From Volutella citrinella (taxonomy: Eukaryota > Ascomycota > Sordariomycetes > Hypocreales > Nectriaceae), in contig JAWZSP010000005.1 in assembly GCA_034401135.1 (NCBI GenBank), positions 806,001 to 870,000 of the forward strand: a stretch of DNA of 64,000 nt, in the 5' to 3' direction. The position numbers and the translations under genes are program-made. The notes under the pieces were generated by a model. That model did no database searches. It was not told where the DNA came from and saw nothing but the letters and a program-made list of their open reading frames with translations. Shown in pieces: positions 753-37,897 of the stretch; within the stretch, counting starts at the first letter, position 1; every line of letters begins with the position of its first letter.

Positions 753-1196
753 AACTACAGACATGAAGCTTGAGTGGAAGCATTAGAATGGAAGTAAATG
801 TATATTTAGTAGGCGGTAGGTTTCAAAATACTAGTTTACGCATTCGATTCCGGTACATTTTAGTCGCGGCCAACTTGGGGACCGTGGTGTGATGACATCG
901 TAACAACGAAGACGGCCAAGCTCAAATGTTGGCCCGATGCTACCTTACGTACATTTGACCCTTTTCTCATTAACTTCCATTGGGATGGGCTAGGAACTAT
1001 GGGCTTTCTGGGTCGTATGTACTCTGCCGGGGCGGCTACTTCGCCGAGAAGAATGCCGGCGATGCTACCTCGGGCAAGAGTCTCGCTCGGGTATGTGTGA
1101 GTACACGCAGTAAGGCCGTTCATTATTTGTCCACAAATACCACGCTTAAGTTGAAGAGATAAACAGCACTAGGCTCCATGGTGCACCGAAGTCACC
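753..1196. other. intergenic spacer with one FarA-type motif
   Basis: Spacer between the dehydrogenase and the esterase, both on the plus strand. It serves as terminator of the first and promoter of the second. It holds CCTCGG at 1068-1073, the core bound by fungal FarA/FarB/Ctf1 fatty-acid regulators. No coding sequence is supported. Confidence 0.6.
1068..1073 (+). promoter_or_regulatory. CCTCGG, FarA/FarB-type motif
   Basis: CCTCGG lies 124 bases upstream of the esterase start. The motif (or its complement CCGAGG) is the known core site of the Zn2Cys6 fatty-acid regulators FarA/FarB of Aspergillus and Ctf1 of Fusarium. Alone a 6-mer proves little; its recurrence across this block is what supports it. 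Confidence 0.4.
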
Positions 1197-2150
1197 ATGT
1201 CGCTGCATTACGACCCCGAGTGGTACGAAACCACCGGCCCAGCACTCACGTCTCAGGCCGAAGTCCTTCCCATTGGCGATGTGAAGACCCGGCGAGAGAG
1301 ATACGCGGCCTTATTTGTCAATTACGACATTAAGCTTCCAGATGACTTGGAACTCAAGGTGCACAAAGCGCCTGCATCAGACGGCTATAAGGTGTCAATC
1401 TACCACATCTCGAACAAGGGCACCCAGGCGTCAGCCAAGAAGACACCGGCTGTTTTACACATTCACGGAGGAGGTTTTACCTCTGTCAATGCAAAGGATG
1501 TGCTGCCCAGCATCGCTCCATACGTATCCAAGACTGGCATACCAATATTCTCAGTCGACTACCGATGGGCACCCGAGAATCCGTTTCCCATCCCCGTTGA
1601 GGACTGCTGGACTGGGCTTCAATATCTCCAGAGCCATGCAGACGAGTACGATATTAACAAAAGTCGCATAGCCATCATGGGAGAGAGCGCTGGAGGATGT
1701 CTGGCTGCGTCGCTGGCCATGATTGCCCGGGACCGCAAATTCTCACCACCATTAGTGAAGCAAATCCTGATCTACCCCATGTTGGATGATCGGACTGTCT
1801 CGGACTACACAGGCGGTCTAGCAGTTTTCAGTGCGAACGATGTAATCACTGGTTGGTCCGCGTACCTCGGCAAAGCATACGGAACCGACCATGTCTCCCC
1901 AATCGGTGCACCAGCACGAGCTGCAGACGTGACTGGTTTGCCGGAGCTCTATCTGGACGTGGGCCAGCTCGACGTCTTCCTCCATGAAGATATTTCATAC
2001 GCGCAGAAGTTCCTTGAGGCGGGGATCCAGACAGAGCTACATGTTTACCCAGGGGTCATTCACGCGTTCCAAAGGTGGAGCAAGGAATCTCATGTTGTGA
2101 AGCAGGCTTTTGTTAACAGGGCGAATGCGATTGCCACCCTGGCTACTTAG
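1197..2150 (+). CDS. alpha/beta hydrolase, HSL-type lipase/esterase
   Basis: An intronless 317-residue alpha/beta hydrolase of the hormone-sensitive-lipase group (alpha/beta hydrolase fold-3). The oxyanion loop HGGGF starts at about residue 90. The nucleophile elbow is GESAGG with Ser about 164. The acid lies in LDVGQLDVF and the histidine in PGVIHAFQRW. The start is the ATG at 1197 in CACCATG context. There is no signal peptide or membrane segment, and the C terminus (ATLAT) is not a PTS1, so a cytosolic ester or lactone hydrolase is likely. It sits between two acyl-CoA dehydrogenases and is convergent with the second. This suggests it releases or opens a substrate (ester, lactone or thioester) feeding the neighbouring beta-oxidation enzymes; that role is an inference. 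Substrate unknown. Confidence 0.9.
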   Translation: MSLHYDPEWYETTGPALTSQAEVLPIGDVKTRRERYAALFVNYDIKLPDDLELKVHKAPASDGYKVSIYHISNKGTQASAKKTPAVLHIHGGGFTSVNAKDVLPSIAPYVSKTGIPIFSVDYRWAPENPFPIPVEDCWTGLQYLQSHADEYDINKSRIAIMGESAGGCLAASLAMIARDRKFSPPLVKQILIYPMLDDRTVSDYTGGLAVFSANDVITGWSAYLGKAYGTDHVSPIGAPARAADVTGLPELYLDVGQLDVFLHEDISYAQKFLEAGIQTELHVYPGVIHAFQRWSKESHVVKQAFVNRANAIATLAT

Positions 2151-2284
2151 TCGCAGCGTTTCGTTTCAGCGAGGCAGTTGCGTCTCATCAATAGGAACAT
2201 TTAAACTCGGATGGGAGTGTATGTATGTGACATATTCTCAAGACAATGGTTGCTCAAATCTCAGATGCTATTTACAACCTCGGT

Positions 2285-3727
2285 CTACAGATTTGCTCTC
2301 GTCAAAGCCCGGGTCTTCGATTTGTACGTCTTGACCATTTGCCGAATCGCCAAATCGAACATGACATCCTCGCTACCACCTGGGATCCTGGCTGCTGGAA
2401 TCTCACGATAGATCTTCTCGACAAGCTCGCCCTGTCCCGTCCGGGTGTACCCATTGCCGCCAAACAGGAGCACCGCACACCGGCCGCATTCATCAATCAC
2501 GGTACCTGCGGTCGCCTTAGCAAGAGCCATGAGCCCACCGAGCTCCCTGTCGGCCTGCTCCTTGGGCATAGTCGCCATTTCGTATACCAGCTGATCAACC
2601 CACGCCGAGAGACTTTCTAGCTGCCCGCCGCATCGAGCAAGGCGGTGGCGCACCACCGGCTGCTCCACGAGGGCTTTTCCAAACGCCTCGCGCTTCATGA
2701 CGTACTCAAAGGCTGCCGAGAGCGCCACACGCGCCGTCCTGACGATGCCGACAATTATACCGAGTCGCTCGTGGTTGAAGTTCCTGGTAATCATCTTCAT
2801 GCCTTCACCCTCCTAGATTTGCCAAACTCATCAGTGCCATGAACGAAACGGATGCTGTGCTGTTTAAATACTCACCTTTCCAATCAAGTTCTCAACAGGT
2901 ACTTTCACGTCTTCAAGATCAATGAATGTCGTTCCACTAGCCGTACCTCCTGTCGTCTTCATTCGGCGGCTTTCGACCCCTTCCTGGTCAAGTAGTGGGA
3001 CAACCAACAGAGAAAGACCCTTGGCCCCATCCTCGCCGGTTCGCACAGCCATTGTCGCATAATGTGACCAAATTCCATTGGTGATCCTGTCATTCATATC
3101 ATGTCAGCGTCGATCTTGTCAGTTGAATCATCTCACGCACCATTTCTTCTGCCCATTGACTATGTAGTACTTTCCGCAGTCGCTTTTGACAGCCGTCGTA
3201 GTGATGTTGGCCACGTCACTTCCAGCGTCCGGCTCTGTAATGGCAATACAGATTCTCGTTTTACCGCGAATTAGATCGGGAAGTAAGCGTTGTTGCAGCT
3301 CCTTGGATCCGTAGCTGATGATCGGAGGCATCCCGTACGCCATGCCGGTGGACATGGACGATGTAGGGCCACCAACACCTGCCCGTCGCATCTCATTGAT
3401 GTAAATGGAAAAGTGGAAGTAGTCAAATTGGTCGATCTTGACACCACCTAGAAGTTCTGTGATGTCCAGCGACTTGAGCATCTCAACTGGGAGAGGCGCA
3501 GGTAGGTTCGGTATCAGCATATTGTGCTTTGAAAAGATGTCGAATACGTGCGACGGAACATCTCCTGCAGTCTCCCAGTCCAGAGCATACGGTGCAAGAT
3601 GCTCGCCGATAAACTCGCGACATGCCCTCTGCCACCGGATGTGAGATTCATTGTAGTACGGCGACGGATGGCCCAGAAGCCACGGGGGCTCAGAAAACGG
3701 CACAGGGACAGTGGGCTCGCGCAACAT
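2285..3727 (-). CDS. acyl-CoA dehydrogenase (3 exons)
   Basis: A complete acyl-CoA dehydrogenase on the minus strand. Exons are 3727-3141, 3086-2876 and 2812-2285, giving 441 residues. Both introns are short GT-AG and restore the family's continuous sequence: QKKW/ITNGIW across intron 1 and ENLIGK/EGEGM across intron 2, then NFNHER. FAD and substrate regions are complete (TEPDAGSD, FGKALVEQPVVRHRLA, LFGGNGYTR). The last catalytic segment reads RIPGGSEDVM, so the Glu of the usual EGT motif is Gly; other dehydrogenases of this type carry the base elsewhere. The C terminus is ANL, a non-canonical PTS1-like end, weaker than the AKL of the first dehydrogenase. It is convergent with the esterase and divergent from the multifunctional enzyme, with which it shares a 581-base promoter region. 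Confidence 0.93.
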
Positions 3728-4308
3728 GGTGACGTATTTGATTGGGTAAATCCAGAATGGTTCAGCGTCGCACCCGTAAAGCCATACACAAGGCTGCTCT
3801 TTTCAGGCGCGAAGAGACACGAAGAGGCATTCCCAGTCGGCTCCAGCCTGCGATATCGGTCCGTGGCAAACCTCGGAGTCGTTTCATTAATGCTGCGGAT
3901 GATTTGCCATAACTCTTTAAACACTAATGGGCCATCCCATCGCAGGCGTTTAGTTGCCGAGGGCCGAGTATGTCGTGAATTACCAACCAGCCAATCACAA
4001 CACGCAACAGCGGAAGCATTCGTTGCCTTCCATCAAGGAGAAGCGGCGATGCTCGTGCGGCTGAATAAAGCCGGTATTATCGAACAAATACTACCATAAC
4101 TCGGTGGAGGGCTCCGACTCATTTGACCTTCCCGTGCATACCCGCGGTCCGACGCATTCGATGCCAAGCGGGTTTTAGACGAGTGCATGTCTTCTTTCCG
4201 GGGTCAATTCCCGGCACTCCTTTAATCTTCATTCGCGCCCGTACATCGCTCTCTCTGTTACTCTGGCCACCATCAACTTCATCTACTGCGCGGGACGAAT
4301 CAACCACC
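3728..4308. other. divergent promoter region of dehydrogenase and multifunctional enzyme
   Basis: 581 bases separate the start codons of the second dehydrogenase (minus) and the multifunctional enzyme (plus). Two FarA-type cores lie inside: CCTCGG 3871-3876 and CCGAGG 3957-3962, in opposite orientation about 85 bases apart. The frame of the multifunctional enzyme is open upstream to an ATG at 4123, but that extension has no family counterpart. Confidence 0.6.
3871..3962. promoter_or_regulatory. paired CCTCGG / CCGAGG fatty-acid regulator motifs
   Basis: CCTCGG at 3871-3876 and its complement CCGAGG at 3957-3962 lie in the shared promoter of two beta-oxidation genes. The FarA/FarB/Ctf1 family is known to bind this core upstream of peroxisomal beta-oxidation genes. 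Function here is inferred from motif and context only. Confidence 0.45.
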
Positions 4309-7160
4309 ATGAGTTTGCGTTTTGACGGGCAGGTTGCCGTGGTCACGGGCGCAGGCTCTGGACTTGGCAAGGCGTATGCAATCCACCTCGCATCAAGAGG
4401 TGCGGCCGTCGTGGTCAATGATCTAGGAGGATCCATGACAGGCGCCGGAGGCAGTTCAAAGGTGTGCCACTGATGCCAGCAACTGTAGATTCTGAACGGA
4501 CTAACATGAGATCCCGCAGGCTGCGGACACAGTAGTCCAAGAGATCAAGGCAGCGGGCGGCAAGGCTGTAGCCAATTATGACAGCGTTGAGCATGGTGAA
4601 AAGCTCATTGAGACGGCCATCGCGGCGTTTGGCCGCATTGACATTCTAATCAACAACGCCGGGATTTTACGGGATGTCAGCTTTAAGAACATCAGAGATA
4701 ATGACTGGGACATCATCAACGCGGTTCATGTTCGTGGCGTCTACAAGACAACCCATGCCGCGTGGCCGTATTTCCGCAAGCAAAAGTACGGCCGGGTCAT
4801 TGTCACATCTTCAGCCTCAGGACTGTACGGCAACTTTGGTCAGAGCAACTACTCAGCCGCGAAACATAGCATGGTTGGATTCGGCGAGACGCTGGCCAAG
4901 GAGGGTGCCAAGTATAACATCAAGACCAATATCATCGCTCCAGTTGCAGCGAGCCGAATGACGGCTACAGTCCTACCACCGGATGTCCTACAGTATCTTG
5001 GCCCGGAATGGGTTGTCCCAGTCGTTTCAACGTTGGTGCATTCTAGCACCACTGAGAATGGATCTATTTTTGAAATTGGCGCAGGGCACGTTGCTAAGAT
5101 CAGATGGGAAAGGGCGGGCGGTGCTCTTCTGAAACCAGATGAGTCTTTCACACCAGGTGCCGTTCTGGCTCGATGGCAACACGTGAATGACTTCACCAAT
5201 GCCGCGCACCCTGACACAACTGCCGATATGGTCGGCAACTTGCGCCTTGCTGAGGCCCTCCCAAGCAACCCCCCGGCTGAGGAGATTCGGTTTGATGGAA
5301 GGGTGGCTGTGGTCACTGGTGGAGGTGCTGGGTGAGTCCCCATGTCACCAACTGTTCTAAACAGAAAGACTGACGACAATACAGGTTGGGCCGCGCCTAC
5401 TCAATTCTCCTTGCTAAGCTAGGTGCATCCGTGGTGGTCAACGACTTGACAAACCCTTACTCAGTTGTTGAAGAAATTCGTACCTTTGGAGGCACCGCAG
5501 TTCCCAACAACTCTTCAGTGGAAGACGGTGATGCAGTAGTCGAAACTGCCATTGCACACTTTGGCAGGGTTGATATCTTGATCAACAACGCCGGCATCCT
5601 CCGAGACAAGTCCTTCCAAAACATGACGGAGCAGCAGTGGGATCAAATCATGGCTGTGCATCTCCGAGGCACTTACAAGTGTAGCAAAGCCGCCTACCCG
5701 TACATGGTCAAGCAGAAGTATGGCAGAATTGTCAACACGACGAGTACCAGCGGCATATACGGTAACTTTGGGCAAGCCAATTACTCGGCAGCTGTAAGTA
5801 ACCGTGTTTCAGAGACTAACCCGACCAAAGAGCTAACATGAAGAAGAAAACGGGCATCATCGGATTTTCAAAAGCATTGGCTATCGAAGGCAAGAAGAAT
5901 AACATCATGGTCAATGTCATCTCGCCATCTGCTGGCACTGCTCTCACCGCCGGCGTGCTGCCGGAAGAGATAGTCAAGTCACGCAAGCCGGAATATGTCG
6001 CACCCATCGTCGTTCTCCTCAGTTCGCACAAGGTGCCGAGCAACGCAACCGGCCAACTCTTCGAGTCTGGCTGCGGCTGGCAGGGCCGGATCCGATGGCA
6101 GCGAAGCGGAGGCCACGATTTCCCCCTCGACACTCCGTTGACTCCCGAAAAGGTTGCCGAGAAGTGGCAGTCTATTGTCAATTTTGATGACGGAAGAGCG
6201 GACCACCCCGAGTCAATCGCAGACTCGAGGAAGCTCGTCTTGGCCAATGTGCAACGAGCAACTCGCGCGCAGCAGGGGCCAAGAGACTACAATGCCGCCA
6301 TTGAGAAGGCCAAGCGTGCTCAGCCGGTCGAGTCCAAGTTTTCATTCACTGACAAGGATACAATTCTCTACAACTATTCCTTAGGAGCGACACGTGAGCA
6401 GCTGCATCTGGTATACGAGGGAAATCCCGACTTCCAGATACTGCCAACATTTGGAGTCATCCCCGGAACAACAGCCAAGCGGCCATTCGACCTGGAGGAT
6501 CTGGTGCCAAACTTCTCATACAAGAAACTACTACACGGAGAGCACTTTTTGGAGATTCGCAAGTACCCACTGCCAACATCTGGCGACCTTGTCTCCACTT
6601 CGCAGCTCATTGAGATTGTTGACAAGGGCAGCGCAAGCATCGCCGTCATTGGAACTACAACTAAAGACAGCAAGGGCGAGGATGTATTCTACAACGAGCT
6701 CTCCCTATTCCTTCGCGGTGCTGGAGGTTTCAATGGGCCCAAATCGAGAGCTGACAAGGGCGCAGCCACAGCCTCGTACTCCATCCTCTCGCGAAAGGCT
6801 GATGAGGTGGTCGAAGAAGCCACTGCACCAGACCAGGCCGTTATTTACCGATTGAACGGTGACAGAAACCCGCTCCATATTGACCCTGCGGCGAGCGCCG
6901 TCGGTGGCTTCAAGACTCCGATTCTGCATGGGTTGTGCAGTTTTGGTCTCAGTGGCAAGCATATTCTGACCAAATACGGTCCTATCAAGAGCATCAAGGC
7001 TCGTTTCGTGGGCACTGTGCTGCCTGGACAGACCTTGAGAACGGAGATGTGGAAGCAGGGCTCCAAGGTCGTGTTCCAGATCAAGATCAAGGAGACTGGC
7101 AAGCTGTGCATTGGTGGTGGAGGTGCCGAGTTGTTGGATGGCCCCAAGACCCGTCTGTGA
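4309..7160 (+). CDS. peroxisomal multifunctional beta-oxidation enzyme type 2 (FOX2-like)
   Basis: Bifunctional enzyme for the hydration and second oxidation of peroxisomal beta-oxidation (enoyl-CoA hydratase-2 plus (3R)-hydroxyacyl-CoA dehydrogenase). Exons are 4309-4461, 4520-5331, 5385-5793 and 5847-7160, giving 895 residues, the normal fungal length. Two short-chain dehydrogenase domains come first, each with a TGxxxGxG loop ([16 protein letters not shown]) and a catalytic YSAAK; the second YSAAK is split by intron 3. A MaoC/hydratase-2 domain follows with [13 protein letters not shown]. The chosen ATG (CACCATG, 4309) places MSLRFDGQ at the usual family start; an in-frame ATG at 4123 would add 62 unrelated residues. 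The protein ends in TRL, a weak PTS1 variant. It diverges noticeably from the textbook FOX2 sequences I remember, so it may be a paralogue belonging to this local block. Confidence 0.95.
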
Positions 7161-7886
7161 CATGAGATGGTCAAGTTAAATCTACACTAGACTCTCCCTT
7201 GTCTCACAATCCTTAAGGAGTATTCGTCAAGCCATCAATTACTTTCATAACGTTCTGTCCAACTTGAAAGAAATCTTTAACAACATCATTTAGTTCACCT
7301 TGATTGAAACTTTACATCATGTGAGCATTTCTACGACATAACTATACGTGTCAGGCGGCAAAGCCAATAGCTCCTTCAAATCTATTCGAGGCAGAGCAGC
7401 CCACGATTTGAAGACTGCTAGCATACGGACCAGCCTTTCATTGTCTTGGGGTCGAGAATATAAGGGTAGCCTCGGCAATGCTCGGTGAAGTTGAATTAGT
7501 TGAGCTCTTCAGCACAACGGGGTGAGCAGGGTGGCTGCATCATAGCCATGTTCTGCTCCGCCGGTACGGTACCGAATTTTCTGAGGCTGCAGCTGCAGAT
7601 TCAACCGAGGCAATCAGATTCTGTACCTTTTCTATTTGTACCGAAGTGCATAAGAAAATAACAGAAAATTCTGTCTCCGGACCAATAACCCTAAGGCTGC
7701 GCTGTAAGTCCTCGGGCCATGTTAGTCGCCGAGGTGCCTATTGGGCGCCCAATCGGATCACGTTGTTGTTTAGGAATCCGTTGCCGTTTCTTTCTGAGGT
7801 CGTTGTGCTCCTTTCAGACTGTTGGTCTATTTCGTTGGCTGTATGAATTGAATCAAGGAGTGCTTCACGTCCGTGGAAAGCGTGCA
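7161..7886. other. intergenic region upstream of thioesterase, four FarA-type motifs
   Basis: 726 bases between the multifunctional enzyme and the thioesterase. Four FarA-type cores occur: 7470-7475, 7605-7610, 7710-7715 and 7729-7734. The thioesterase frame is open upstream to an ATG at 7719, but the residues before 7887 do not resemble the family. Confidence 0.55.
7470..7734. promoter_or_regulatory. cluster of four CCTCGG/CCGAGG motifs
   Basis: CCTCGG at 7470 and 7710, CCGAGG at 7605 and 7729. The last two form a close inverted pair (CCTCGG, 13 bases, CCGAGG). They lie 150-420 bases upstream of the likely thioesterase start. They match the known FarA/FarB/Ctf1 core; binding here is inferred. 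Confidence 0.5.
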
Positions 7887-8993
7887 ATGATACCTAAAAT
7901 GGACAAACAGGCTAATGAAGTGCTGCCCACCGAGCGCATGTTGTCGATCGTGCCTGCACCTGACAAAGGCAAAGATGTTTACAAGAATGCACAGAGCTTG
8001 TGGCATCCGCTGTGGGCACGCGGGCTCTATGGCGGCGCGATAATCGCCCAGGCCCTCATTGTGGCCCAGGAGACAATGGCTACACGTTACGTGGCAGAGA
8101 GTATGCATAGCCATTTTCTGCTGCCAGCGCGCAGTACATCTCCTGTGTTCTACCATGTCGAAAGAATGCGAGATGGCCGAAGTATGAGCGCAAGAAGAGT
8201 GGAAGCGTATCAGTTGGACGAGCGCATTTTCACAAGCATCGTCAATTTTTCTCTCATACCTGCCCACAGCAACAGGAGAGAGCTGAAGCATCAAACATCA
8301 ATGCCAGCTATCGCCAGGTCTGCTGGCCCGCCATCAGGTTACAGAGAGTCAGTGGACAGAGATTTATTGACAAAGACTTGTCAACCGGATGGAGGTAGCT
8401 TGTATGAGTGTGTGAGAGTTGCTGCAGAAAATAGCCAACAGCGTCAGAGGCCAGACGAAAAACGATTCCAGCATTGGATCAGACTACAAAACGAAGAAAT
8501 CGGACAACCATCCACCAGCAAAATTAGGAAAGGCTACTCGAATACCAACGCCCATCTTGCAGCTCTTGCCTACCTAACCGATCATTACTTCATTGGCACA
8601 GCTGCTCGGGTGCACTATGCTGACCGCTTTCAAAATTCGACATCAATCAAGTCACTGGTTGAGTCCTTGAACTCTGAAGATCCTTCAACACCACACGTGT
8701 TTCGTTCGGTAGAGGAACTGCAAAGGGAAGAAGCAGCAGAAAATAGTGCTGCCAATCCCTCTCGCGAGGTTATTGAGATGATGGTAACTTTGGACCACAC
8801 CATTTACTTCCACAACCAGACGACGGTTCGAGCAAACGACTGGATGTTTGCTGAGTGTCAAGCTCCTTGGGCAGGACAGGAGAAAGGCCTTGTAACACAG
8901 CATATATGGAGTAGTGACGGGGTTCTTATTGCGACGTGCATTCAGGAAGGACTTATTCGCCTGGGACAGAATGCGGGACAAAGCAGACTATAG
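7887..8993 (+). CDS. peroxisomal acyl-CoA thioesterase (TesB/Pte1 family)
   Basis: Double-hotdog acyl-CoA thioesterase II that hydrolyses acyl-CoA to free acid and CoA; 368 residues from the ATG at 7887. The N-terminal hotdog shows RGLYGGAIIAQAL and MHSHFLLPARSTSPVFY. The C-terminal hotdog shows LDHTIYFHNQTTVRANDW and the family's IQEGLIRLG, giving the expected Asp and Gln. The C terminus is SRL, a canonical PTS1, so it acts in peroxisomes. The start is uncertain: the frame is open to an ATG at 7719 and another lies at 7899, but family similarity begins only near TERMLSIV. It closes the five-gene lipid block and may release intermediates or end products or recover CoA. The middle (about residues 130-230) is longer and more divergent than in bacterial TesB. 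Confidence 0.9.
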   Translation: MIPKMDKQANEVLPTERMLSIVPAPDKGKDVYKNAQSLWHPLWARGLYGGAIIAQALIVAQETMATRYVAESMHSHFLLPARSTSPVFYHVERMRDGRSMSARRVEAYQLDERIFTSIVNFSLIPAHSNRRELKHQTSMPAIARSAGPPSGYRESVDRDLLTKTCQPDGGSLYECVRVAAENSQQRQRPDEKRFQHWIRLQNEEIGQPSTSKIRKGYSNTNAHLAALAYLTDHYFIGTAARVHYADRFQNSTSIKSLVESLNSEDPSTPHVFRSVEELQREEAAENSAANPSREVIEMMVTLDHTIYFHNQTTVRANDWMFAECQAPWAGQEKGLVTQHIWSSDGVLIATCIQEGLIRLGQNAGQSRL

Positions 8994-31249: not shown

Positions 31250-33126
31250 TCACAATTCCCCCTTCAGCCCAGCTGCAACTAGATCGACGGCTTCGTACGT
31301 ATGCCAGTGCCCCACGCCGGGGAGCACCAACAGACGCGCATTCTTCAGCGTTGATGCGTAGCGCTCGCCAACCAGTGGAGGAGACGCCTTGTCATCCGAC
31401 CCGATGACGATGATGCTCTCGGTCTCAATCTTCTCCAGCGGCACTGGCTCCGTCGCTCTGGCCGTCGCCCAGCAGCCCTTTGCATACGTTTGAGGGTCTT
31501 GGCCGAGCAGAGTCAAACGCACAGCGGTTACTGCCATGGGGTTGGAACGACGGCTTTGCTCAGACACGGACGTGGCCACAATGGTATCGACTCCCGCACC
31601 CATGCCCCTGGCCCTCACCAGGGCGGCCATCTCGTAGTAAATTTCCGACGCTGCTGGCGGAACCGGGTTCGGCGGCGGACCGATCAGTACGAGCTTCCTC
31701 ACAAGGCCCGGGTGCTCCAAAGTGAACTCGGCAGCTGCTCTGCAGCCTATGGCATGGGCTATGATGGTTGCAGGCTGTTGCGGGGAGATCTGGGCGCGCT
31801 GAAAGATGCCCGCGAGGTCAGCTGCCAGCGACGTAGTCGATATCTCGCTCAGCGGGTGAGTCGAGCTTTGTCCGTGGCCCTCGAGGTCAAATAGGTGCAG
31901 CGAATGAGTCTGTTCGAGGCCGAGCGCATGGATGAGTGGCAGCCAGAACTCCATTGTCGCACCCAAGCCGTGGACGAAGACAATATGCTTGTCTCCAGAG
32001 CCCAGCTTTTCGTAGTGGAGCGGCTTGGAGTTGGTCAAACCGGTTTCCCTAGTAATGTCTGCGGAGTTGGTCCCATTGACGGCTTGGAAGGCAGACTGCG
32101 CAGCGACCGAGGAGCTGCCATCGTCAAGAGGTGGAGCGATCCGGTTGCTCAGCGAGCCCAAGCCCGTGATTGAAACGGTGACCTCGTCACCGGCTTTGAG
32201 GTATACCGGCGGCGACTTGCCAATGCCAACCCCAGCCGGCTAATTAAGAGTAAGCTGATGAGTTGCGATTGACATGAGATGCGCGGAGCGTACCGTTCCA
32301 GTGGCAATTACGTCACCGGACTGAATTGTCTGGCCGGCGGAAATGGCGCTGATCAGAGTTGGAATTGAAAAGATGAGGTCCTCCGACGTTGCGCTCTGTC
32401 GCAGCTCGCCATTCACATGTGTCTGGACCTGAAGCGTTGATGGGAGGTCTGCCTTGGCGACTGCTATAGGACCCTGGATAGACTGTCAGCGGGTCAATTG
32501 ACAGATGCTCATCCGTCACTCACCATGGGGCAGAACGTATCCGGCGATTTTCCAATAAAGAACTGCTTGTGGTCTCGCTGCCTCTCGCGCGCCGTCACGT
32601 CGTTGATGATGGTGTAGCCCCAGACATGGTCCCAGGCGTCCTTCTCCTGGATGCGATACCCCGGCTTCCCCAGAATGACACCGATTTCACCCTCGTAATC
32701 GACGGTCTGGGAAAAGGCCTGGTGCGGGAGCACAATGTCCTCGCCGTGCGCGATTATCGAGGTGACCCTCTTGGTGAAGATGACTGGGTGGCTCGGACGG
32801 GCCACCTTGTCGGAGCTGTCAAAGCCGGAGCTGTTGAACTCGTGGGCGTGCTCCAAGTAATTCTTGCCCACGGCCAGCACGTCGCGGCCGGCAAGGGGAG
32901 GCAGCAGCTTGACCGTGGAGACGGCAATATCGTTTCCGACGGCCACAAGCCTGGCGCCGGGGCCGGCCTCGATGACCTGGTACAGGTTCGCGACGGGCGT
33001 GCCGGCCACAAAGGCCAGCGGCTGGATGAAGCCCCGGCCGGCGTCGAGGTGGCCGATGCGCCCGAGGCCCGTCTCCGGGTCCTGGTACGCGGCGTACTGC
33101 ACGACAAGGGGGGCGGGATGCTCCAT
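31250..33126 (-). CDS. fusion: fumarylacetoacetate-hydrolase-family domain + alpha/beta-hydrolase domain lacking the nucleophile Ser
   Basis: Exons 33126-32524, 32473-32294 and 32239-31250 join in phase 0 to give 590 residues. Residues 1 to about 285 are a FAH-family domain (isomerase, hydratase or decarboxylase of aromatic catabolism and acylpyruvate hydrolases) with VGKNYLEHAHEF, VDYEGEIGVILGKPG, TIINDVTARERQRDHKQFF and SGDVIATGTPAGVG, so the metal site looks intact. After VTVSITGLGS and a linker of about 50 residues comes an alpha/beta hydrolase (about 325-590) with FVHGLGATMEFW, DLEGHGQS, VIGSDDKASPP and PGVGHWHTYEA. The nucleophile elbow reads IIAHAIGC: alanine (residue 424, codon GCC at 31751-31753) replaces the usual GxSxG serine. 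The second domain is therefore probably a non-catalytic or altered partner. No targeting signal. Exon 3 carries the FAH end and the whole hydrolase domain in one open frame, so the fusion is not a splicing guess. Confidence 0.9.
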
Positions 33127-36100: not shown

Positions 36101-36243
36101 GCTGACTTGGTGTATATAAAGAGCCTCCGTGATCGCCTCGTCGAGAGATAATCAGCAGTCTATCGATCTCCAGTTTCCCCAATCTTACTTCTGGCTCCTC
36201 GTTTCCGCGCAAGACGCTTGATTTAGTTGTTGGTTCATTGACC
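33127..36243. other. 3.1 kb gene-poor region
   Basis: Only short frames below 170 codons occur, with no recognisable domain and no frame-consistent exon series that I could build. A TATA-box candidate for the next gene lies at 36113-36120. It could hold a non-coding transcript, a decayed gene or a small secreted protein; none is supported. Confidence 0.45.
36113..36120 (+). promoter_or_regulatory. TATA box candidate (TATATAAA)
   Basis: TATATAAA lies 124 bases upstream of the MFS start codon at 36244. The distance and sequence fit a TATA element with a short 5' leader. Confidence 0.55.
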
Positions 36244-37897
36244 ATGGAGCCCAGTCCAAAGACCGAGGCCGCCGTCGAGGAGACGCGGAAGATGTCCGCT
36301 GATGCCGTCGTCAAGACGCTCGACGAGGACGACATGAGCGACTTCCAGGAGATCCCTCCCCTTGACATCCCCTGGAAGTACAAGTGGGCAGCCCTTGCGT
36401 GCATCGTCGTCCTGCCCATGGGCGAGAAGTGGGGGAGTGCAGCCCTCGGCCCCCTCAAGAGCACCCTTCGCAAGGAGCTCGGCATCAACAACACCCAGTT
36501 TGGCATCATCTCCAGCGCAGACTCCTTCATCAACAGTATCCTGCCCATTGTTGGTGGCATCGTCCTCGACTGGTGGGGCCCCAACCCCGTCACCATTGTG
36601 TGTACCTTCATCGTCTTTCTTGGCACTGTCGTCGGCGCCCTCGGCGTCCAGTTCAGCATCTGGAGGGTCCTCGCCGCCGGTAACATTGTCTCTGGTCTAG
36701 GCGTGGCTATTCTCGACTCGGCAACACACAAGGTTTGTGGACCAGTTTGATACATACTTCCAGCGACGACTAACCATATCCTTTGTAGATGTTCTACCAT
36801 TGGTTCGGCGCTCGCGACTTCGCCTTCATCTTTGGCCTCGAGAGCGCCATCTCCAACGCCATCGGCATGGCGGGCGGCATGAGCGCAGTGCCTATTCGCG
36901 ATGGTACCGGCTGGTACGGCTGGACCTTTTGGGTCCCCGCGTGCTTCTGCTTTGTCTCCCTGTGCATCAACGTCTTCTACGTCTACTTTGAGCGCCGCGT
37001 CGTTCCCAAGGAGTACCGCTTCGCGTCCGGCCGCGCCCGCGCAAACATGAAGACGACACACAAGGAGTTCCAGTGGAACGTCCTATTCATCTTGCCGTGG
37101 CAGTTCCTCATGCTTCCCTGCACCCAGGTCCTCCAGAACGGTGGCGCGGGCGGCATCGACGTCAGCATGGCCGATATCATCGCCATGAAGGGCTACACGG
37201 ACGCCGTGGCTGGCTACCTGTCCACCGGCCGCAAGGTCATCCGCATCATTCTGAGCCCCTTTATCGGCTGGGCTATTGACAAGTACGGCCACCGCTTCCA
37301 CTACGTTGCTTTTGCGCCCCTCCTCTTCATCACCTCGTGCGCCCTGCTCGGATTCACCAACGTGCACCCCATGGTTCCCCTCGTCTTCTCCAGCCTGGCA
37401 GATACCATCAACGCGCTGCCCCTGCAAATTTGCTTCCCCCTTCTGGTGCGGGACCAGAACAAGCTCGGTACCGCCTACGGTGTGTGGCGTGCCTTCAACA
37501 ATGCCAACTCCACTATCGTGAGTGACTACTCCAATACTGTCCATTGTTAAGTAAGAGTGCTGACGAATTACTTGTACAGACCGATGTTGTGTACGGCCTC
37601 CTCCAGGACGGCACCAAGAACATGGGCTACTCTAGGGTCCTGTTGATGGCCATTGGCATCAAGTCAGTGGGCTTTGTTCTTGGTCTCATCTACATCATCA
37701 TCGACCACAAGTGGATTGGCAAGTCACTGACCATGACTCGCAAGCGCCGCGAGTCCCGCGAGGCCGACATCCTGGACCCCAACTCGGATCCTCTCACCCG
37801 CCGCAAGCCCGTCAAGTGGCTCACCATTCTCACCCTGTCTCTCCTGGTGGCCGTTATCGCTACAGCTTGGACTCTGTTCATCCGATACCTCATCTAG
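36244..37897 (+). CDS. MFS transporter, possibly MFSD1-like (3 exons)
   Basis: Polytopic membrane transporter. Exons are 36244-36732, 36789-37517 and 37580-37897, all phase 0, giving 511 residues. After an acidic 40-residue cytosolic leader come helices starting at YKWAALACIVVLPMGEKWGS. The region INNTQFGIISSADSFINSILPIVGGIVLDWWGPN recalls MFSD1-like carriers of lysosome/vacuole membranes. Further helices include NVLFILPWQFLMLPCTQVLQN and VVAVIATAWTLFIRYLI-like segments at the end. A central loop is rich in basic residues (ERRVVPKEYRFASGRARANMK). The ATG at 36244 is in ACCATGG context with a TATA box upstream. The family name is tentative; a nutrient or drug carrier of another MFS class is possible. 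Membrane and substrate unknown. Confidence 0.85.

What the first reader, a model, noticed from the sequence alone, without database searches (positions are those of the whole stretch)
31250..33126. FAH-family enzyme fused to an alpha/beta-hydrolase that lost its nucleophile serine
Seen: one continuous model of 590 residues joins an intact-looking FAH-family domain to an alpha/beta-hydrolase domain whose elbow reads AHAIG instead of GxSxG (Ala424, codon GCC), while the Asp (GSDDK) and His (GVGHWH) positions remain. Known: FAH-family enzymes open or isomerise beta-diketo acids in aromatic catabolism, and separate ring-opening hydrolases often act next to them. Inference: the second domain may be a structural, ligand-holding or regulatory pseudo-enzyme, or use another mechanism. 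I do not recall this pairing as a described two-domain enzyme.
Basis: partly seen in the sequence, partly recalled or inferred. Interest (0 to 1): 0.8.

Follow-up and report, generated by a model that had tools for sequence, protein, structure and literature searches.

The report
Fungal fused enzyme, one half disarmed
A fungal gene encodes two enzymes joined in one chain; the join is common in fungi and has a counterpart in neighbouring bacterial genes, but in this copy the second enzyme has lost the serine it would need to cut its target, as a few relatives have done separately, while the first enzyme looks intact.

Summary
One three-exon gene on the minus strand (33126..31250) encodes 590 residues: a YisK/FAHD-like FAH domain, then an alpha/beta-hydrolase (ABH) domain whose nucleophile position is Ala424 (GCC). 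The junction lies inside exon 3 with no stop.

The fusion is common: 120 of 120 listed homologues, all ascomycete where named, have both domains. Ala is unusual: 129 of 139 rows have Ser. Triad loss recurs: Ser424 in at least 4 tree changes, His572 in at least 4; the FAH site is invariant.

Bacteria carry FAH and ABH as adjacent genes (23 of 80 loci) or fused (2 of 80), with an amidohydrolase beside the pair in 23 of 25. This fungus has a second copy with intact Ser-Asp-His, next to an amidohydrolase gene in the bacterial order. The window gene is an orphan paralogue outside that cluster.

Most likely a duplicate that keeps FAH chemistry and uses its ABH domain as a folded non-hydrolytic module. 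Nothing was assayed. Nine open-access paper searches listed no description of it.

The parts
31250..33126 (-). FAH-ABH fusion gene, three exons, 590 codons plus stop
   Evidence: Splice model and translation; both Pfam domains; 120 of 120 listed homologues cover both domains
32524..33126 (-). Exon 1 (residues 1-201)
   Evidence: same intron position in the paralogue
32474..32523 (-). Intron 1, 50 nt, GT..AG
32294..32473 (-). Exon 2 (residues 202-261)
32240..32293 (-). Intron 2, 54 nt, GT..AG
31250..32239 (-). Exon 3 (residues 262-590 and stop): end of FAH, linker, whole ABH domain in one open frame
32138..32880 (-). FAH domain, residues 83-295 (interrupted by both introns)
   Evidence: Pfam FAA_hydrolase; YisK match
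31304..31990 (-). ABH domain, residues 345-573
   Evidence: Pfam Abhydrolase_1; fold match
31751..31753 (-). Codon 424 GCC, Ala at the nucleophile position
   Evidence: Ser in 129 of 139
31391..31393 (-). Asp544, triad acid position
31307..31309 (-). His572, triad base position
32686..32694 (-). Glu145 and Glu147, predicted metal ligands of FAH (role recalled)
   Evidence: 140 of 140 conserved; positions
32599..32601 (-). Asp176, predicted metal ligand of FAH (role recalled)
   Evidence: 140 of 140 conserved; position
32839..32850 (-). His93 and Glu96, predicted acid-base dyad of FAH (role recalled)
   Evidence: 140 of 140 conserved; positions
32548..32550 (-). Lys193 of FAH (role recalled)
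   Evidence: 140 of 140 conserved; position

Best explanation
The gene is a diverged paralogue, away from the cluster, of a widespread ascomycete two-domain protein (YisK/FAHD-like FAH plus an enol-lactonase-like alpha/beta-hydrolase). The FAH domain is probably active: a divalent metal held by Glu145, Glu147 and Asp176, with His93/Glu96 as acid-base, acts on a 2-oxo (beta-diketo or oxaloacetate-like) acid by enol-keto tautomerisation, decarboxylation or C-C cleavage. The ABH domain can no longer act as a serine hydrolase because Ala stands in for Ser424; it is kept as a folded, non-hydrolytic module that stabilises the protein, binds the ligand or pairs with the intact copy. The intact copy, next to an amidohydrolase gene on another contig, would carry out the complete reaction series. 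Shown: gene structure, fusion, Ala424, conservation, recurrent loss, intact paralogue and its neighbours. Inferred: all activities and the role of the silent domain.
For: Fusion and Ala confirmed. 120 of 120 listed homologues cover both domains. FAH residues 93, 96, 145, 147, 176 and 193 invariant in 140 of 140. Ser is normal at 424 (129 of 139) but lost in at least 4 changes; His572 lost in 27 of 139, at least 4 changes; the ten non-Ser rows as one clade rejected, p-AU 3e-9. ABH largely kept: the window copy has the majority residue in 58 of 64 strongly conserved ABH columns, and its end-branch ABH/FAH ratio is 1.77 against a median of 1.60 in 96 intact rows. ABH part of the model confident (10-residue means 82-98 pLDDT from residue 331 on) with residue 424 at the elbow. 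Ser-Asp-His paralogue in the same genome, next to an amidohydrolase; none found in the window. FAHD enzymes including YisK have oxaloacetate tautomerase activity (PMC10825186, passages).
Against: No expression or activity data. The window copy departs from the conserved residue in 6 ABH columns where the median is 2 for intact and 3 for broken rows. It has a long end branch in both domains (FAH 0.30, ABH 0.53, against 0.13 and 0.15 for the paralogue). Over all branches that lead only to broken copies the ABH/FAH ratio is 2.27 against 1.49 elsewhere. All three point to some relaxation. Asp and His are kept here, which a purely structural role does not require.
Confidence: 0.58

Rival explanations
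1. The ABH domain is still catalytic without a serine nucleophile: His572/Asp544 act as a general-base dyad on an enol or lactone substrate, as in cofactor-free dioxygenases of this fold or the ketonisation half-reaction of meta-cleavage hydrolases.
For: Asp544, His572, the HGLG loop and the DxEGHG motif are all kept here; the two other losses of Ser outside Trichoderma, P0009 (Gly) and P0037 (Ala), also keep Asp and His. That dyad chemistry is known in this fold is recalled, not from a call.
Against: The seven Trichoderma copies without Ser also lack His572, so the family tolerates losing both. Arg428 in the elbow helix is unique (1 of 140). No Ser or Cys stands directly beside 424.
Confidence: 0.17
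2. The ABH half is simply decaying: a dispensable duplicate on its way to loss, with no role for the silent domain.
For: Long branch; 6 departures in conserved ABH columns against a median of 2; Ser-Asp-His paralogue elsewhere in the genome; excess ABH change over all broken branches.
Against: Open 990-nt exon at full length; 58 of 64 conserved ABH columns kept; end-branch ABH/FAH ratio near the family median, and no significant difference between 96 intact and 31 broken rows (p 0.16). In Trichoderma a clade of 23 His572-less copies keeps the ABH domain.
Confidence: 0.17
3. Ala424 is a sequencing or assembly error, or a private mutation of the sequenced strain.
For: One assembly only; a TCC Ser codon is one base from GCC; nearest homologue only 63 percent identical, so there is no close control.
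Against: A second unique elbow residue (Arg428) lies four codons on, and a member of the same small clade, P0009, has Gly at 424.
Confidence: 0.05

Closest known systems
Uncharacterised ascomycete FAH-ABH fusion proteins (sources call some 'bifunctional 4-hydroxyphenylacetate degradation enzyme', 'yisK' or 'fumarylacetoacetate hydrolase')
   Same: Same two domains in the same order, lengths 571-801 (mostly near 590), 54-63 percent identity in the 120 listed
   Different: Ser at 424 in 129 of 139; the window copy has Ala
Bacillus subtilis YisK (PDB 8sky, 8sut, 8suu), FAHD family
   Same: Best solved relative of the FAH half, E 1.4e-71; top fold match; the His, Glu, Asp and Lys positions listed in parts are shared in the printed alignment
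   Different: The YisK chain (312 aa) has no ABH domain
3-oxoadipate enol-lactonase (PDB 2xua) and Thermogutta esterase (4uhc)
   Same: Among the nearest solved relatives of the ABH half; fold match TM 0.85-0.88 of the target
   Different: Both have Ser where the query has Ala in the printed alignments; exon 3 scores 85 against the PcaD cut-off of 255.85
Bacterial FAH-ABH-amidohydrolase gene set (Mesorhizobium, Massilia, Pacificispira and others)
   Same: Homologues of both halves adjacent (23 of 80) or fused (2 of 80)
   Different: Mostly separate genes; triad intact in 24 of 24 ABH partners with the whole domain; amidohydrolase beside the pair in 23 of 25

Membership tests
FAH superfamily (FAHD/YisK type) | FAA_hydrolase domain | tested here: met
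   226 bits against cut-off 23.9; best solved relative YisK
FAH superfamily (FAHD/YisK type) | Acidic metal ligands, His-Glu dyad and Lys (roles recalled) | tested here: met
   Glu145, Glu147, Asp176, His93, Glu96, Lys193 in 140 of 140
FAH superfamily (FAHD/YisK type) | Oxaloacetate tautomerase or related activity | not testable with these tools
   Reported for FAHD enzymes incl. YisK (PMC10825186, passages)
Serine alpha/beta-hydrolases | Alpha/beta-hydrolase fold | tested here: met
Serine alpha/beta-hydrolases | Nucleophile at the elbow | tested here: not met
   Ala424
Serine alpha/beta-hydrolases | Acid and His of the triad | tested here: met
   Asp544 and His572
3-oxoadipate enol-lactonase (PcaD) | TIGR02427 score over the curated cut-off | tested here: not met
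   Window exon 3: 85.0 against 255.85
HpaG bifunctional isomerase/decarboxylase | TIGR02303 over the cut-off; second FAH domain | tested here: not met
   Second domain is ABH; closest homologue P0001 scores 154 against 276.4. The full window FAH half was not run on NCBIfam, only its exon 3 part
Ascomycete FAH-ABH fusion family | Both domains in this order in one chain of about 590 aa | tested here: met

The most novel reading that the evidence does not exclude
Fungi repeatedly duplicate a fused catabolic enzyme that has a bacterial operon counterpart and disarm the hydrolase half of one copy, which then works as a pseudoenzyme subunit, pairing through its FAH domain with the intact copy or holding the intermediate for it. 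The window gene would be one of several independent cases.
Probability: 0.25. Interest if true: 0.65.

Novelty: new variant of a known kind. Interest (0 to 1): 0.45.

Why it matters
A serine hydrolase domain that is repeatedly disarmed while its fused partner stays invariant offers natural replicates for asking what a silent enzyme domain does. The wider context, a bacterial FAH-ABH-amidohydrolase gene set that reappears in a fungus as a fused gene beside a related amidohydrolase in the same order, points to a catabolic route whose substrate is unknown and which could be approached genetically in bacteria.

Tried and rejected
Rejected: two separate genes (exon 3 spans the junction and introns are conserved). 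Rejected: one shared origin of all ten non-Ser copies (AU test). Rejected as evidence: P0086, whose chain runs from the ABH domain into an amidohydrolase and so shows a false Arg at column 572; dropped from the final counts (140 rows to 139) but still in the 140-row figures. P0100 (gap at Asp544) and P0134 (Glu there) were left in and count as broken. Tried for standalone ABH relatives: 70 of the 120 listed carry the in-frame tail of FAH and so are pieces of the fusion; 118 of 120 have an intact triad; the origin of the ABH half stayed open. Tried to root the fusion: actinobacterial fusions group with fungi at 92 (FAH) and 75 (ABH), neither starred, and meeting long branches were flagged for FAH, so one fusion event is possible, not shown. 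In the order of L017 a match at E 1e-100 was found in 1 of 293 genomes, L017's own, with only 4 candidates scored in each listed genome. The 80 loci are the best of 545 by similarity to the fusion, which favours loci with both domains, so 25 of 80 is no frequency. Papers: nine searches were answered. Eight aimed at the fusion, its silent copies or the gene set: five of them found no paper, the other three listed 10 of 11, 1 and 4 papers of which none was opened, and no title or abstract start describes this fusion. One aimed at YisK; from it PMC10825186 was opened (passages only). Only open-access papers are held.

Full report
Observation. The gene lies on the minus strand. Three exons (33126-32524, 32473-32294, 32239-31250) with GT..AG introns give 590 residues. 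Pfam finds FAA_hydrolase at 83-295 and Abhydrolase_1 at 345-573. The elbow reads AHAIG with Ala424 = GCC; Asp544 and His572 are in place. Residues 262-590, that is the end of FAH, the linker and the whole ABH domain, share exon 3, so the join is in one reading frame. The same two intron positions occur in a paralogue elsewhere in the genome.

The fusion is a common architecture for which I found no functional study. The best 120 of 1023 homologues all cover both domains, 54-63 percent identical, from genera such as Fusarium, Trichoderma, Xylaria, Colletotrichum, Bipolaris, Talaromyces and Paecilomyces. A second search with a Trichoderma member added 18 new rows. With the window protein and its paralogue this gave 140 aligned proteins.

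Ser is the norm, but the triad is lost repeatedly. Dropping the merged model P0086 leaves 139 rows: Ser424 in 129 and not in 10 (8 Ala, 1 Gly, 1 Glu); His572 in 112 and not in 27; 107 rows have Ser-Asp-His and 32 do not. On the tree these need at least 4, 4 and 8 changes, and holding the ten non-Ser rows as one clade is rejected (p-AU 3.1e-9). In Trichoderma a 23-row clade has Gln or Arg for His572, and within it one subclade of seven also lost Ser. The window gene sits in a 7-row clade supported at 96 with P0009 (Gly424) and five Ser copies. If the window copy and P0009 were sisters the minimum for Ser would fall to three. In the environmental pieces, 118 of 120 have the intact triad and the other two have lost only His572, so loss is the exception.

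The FAH half is untouched. Residues 93, 96, 145, 147, 176 and 193 are invariant in 140 of 140. The closest solved protein is YisK (E 1.4e-71), also the top fold match. FAHD proteins including YisK show oxaloacetate tautomerase activity, with little decarboxylase activity (PMC10825186, passages only). The ABH half is nearest to an esterase and an enol-lactonase among solved structures but falls far below the enol-lactonase cut-off.

Is the silent domain still under constraint? Partly. The window copy keeps the majority residue in 58 of 64 ABH columns that are at least 90 percent conserved; its 6 departures compare with a median of 2 in intact and 3 in broken rows, and with up to 8 in an intact copy (P0055). 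Its end-branch ABH/FAH ratio is 1.77; the median is 1.60 for 96 intact rows and 1.77 for 31 broken rows (Mann-Whitney p 0.16; 13 of 140 rows with FAH end branches of 0.02 or less were left out). Against this, summed over all branches the broken subtrees have 2.27 against 1.49 elsewhere, and the window copy has longer end branches than its paralogue in both domains. The predicted model (mean pLDDT 83.3; 10-residue means 82-98 from residue 331 on, lower in much of FAH) places residue 424 between strand 418-423 and helix 425-436. It is a monomer model with pTM 0.64, and I did not measure whether the FAH site and the ABH pocket face each other.

The genome holds an intact copy with telling neighbours. 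The paralogue at C3:4585602-4587495 has AHSLGC, GDEDK and TGHWH; its FAH half is 71 percent and its ABH half 50 percent identical to the window copy. Downstream of it, on the same strand, lies an amidohydrolase gene at about C3:4582481-4584038 whose pieces are 37-68 percent identical to the bacterial amidohydrolase; the other matches in the genome are 27-30 percent identical. On its other side are a Gpr1/Fun34/YaaH transporter and a fungal transcription-factor domain. No amidohydrolase match falls in the window. Names show a broken and an intact copy together in T. arundinaceum (P0073, P0067) and, by locus-tag prefix, in one T. viride assembly (P0082, P0094).

Bacterial counterparts. A scan of bacterial and archaeal genomes kept 80 of 545 loci. 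Two (Streptomyces L017, Williamsia L018) have the two domains in one open frame and 23 have FAH followed directly by ABH; by earliest start codon, 8 of the 23 are 3 nt apart and 6 overlap by 4 nt. In 24 of 24 partners with the whole ABH domain the triad is intact; L029 is cut by the contig end. An amidohydrolase lies next to the pair in 23 of 25 (L018 only in part, at the contig end; L017 none in 3 kb; L029 has no sequence left), against 2 of 55 loci without the pair. GntR or AraC regulators and branched-chain-type transporter permeases flank some of the loci looked at. The amidohydrolase resembles Xaa-Pro dipeptidase, arginine carboxypeptidase and ochratoxinase. So the order FAH, ABH, amidohydrolase is shared by bacteria and by the fungus's intact locus. 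Whether this reflects transfer, one fusion event or two is not settled.

Mechanism. In the complete system I infer that the amidohydrolase cleaves an amide or lactam, the ABH domain an ester, lactone or C-C bond, and the FAH domain processes the resulting 2-oxo acid; fusion would pass the intermediate between the last two. The window copy would keep only the FAH step plus a binding or structural ABH module. Shown are the anatomy, conservation and context; every reaction is inference.

Verdict. The bacterial gene set and the intact clustered copy are the more informative discovery.

Noticed in passing
G000:C3 about 4582481-4591360 (L101, L102): Apparent catabolic cluster in the same genome: amidohydrolase, FAH-ABH fusion with intact triad, Gpr1/Fun34/YaaH transporter, transcription factor. 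An open frame between amidohydrolase and fusion reads like a cytochrome b5 domain (my reading, no Pfam run).
   Followed up: partly
L017-L096 (25 of 80 loci): Bacterial FAH-ABH pairs, 23 of 25 with an amidohydrolase beside them, some with GntR or AraC regulators and branched-chain-type transporter permeases; substrate unknown.
   Followed up: partly
P0086 (Colletotrichum jinshuiense): 801-aa predicted protein holding FAH, ABH and amidohydrolase parts; probably a merged gene model, which would place the amidohydrolase next to the fusion in another fungus too.
   Followed up: partly
window 1173-8993: Open frames that read like a fatty-acid degradation set: an alpha/beta-hydrolase, an acyl-CoA dehydrogenase, a multifunctional beta-oxidation enzyme and an acyl-CoA thioesterase (my reading, no family search).
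   Followed up: no
window 36133-37550: MFS transporter gene about 3 kb upstream of the fusion gene, divergently transcribed (Pfam MFS_1); possible co-regulated neighbour.
   Followed up: partly
L022 2941-4605: FAH and ABH lie in the same frame with a single TGA between them, which shows how easily such a pair could fuse.
   Followed up: no
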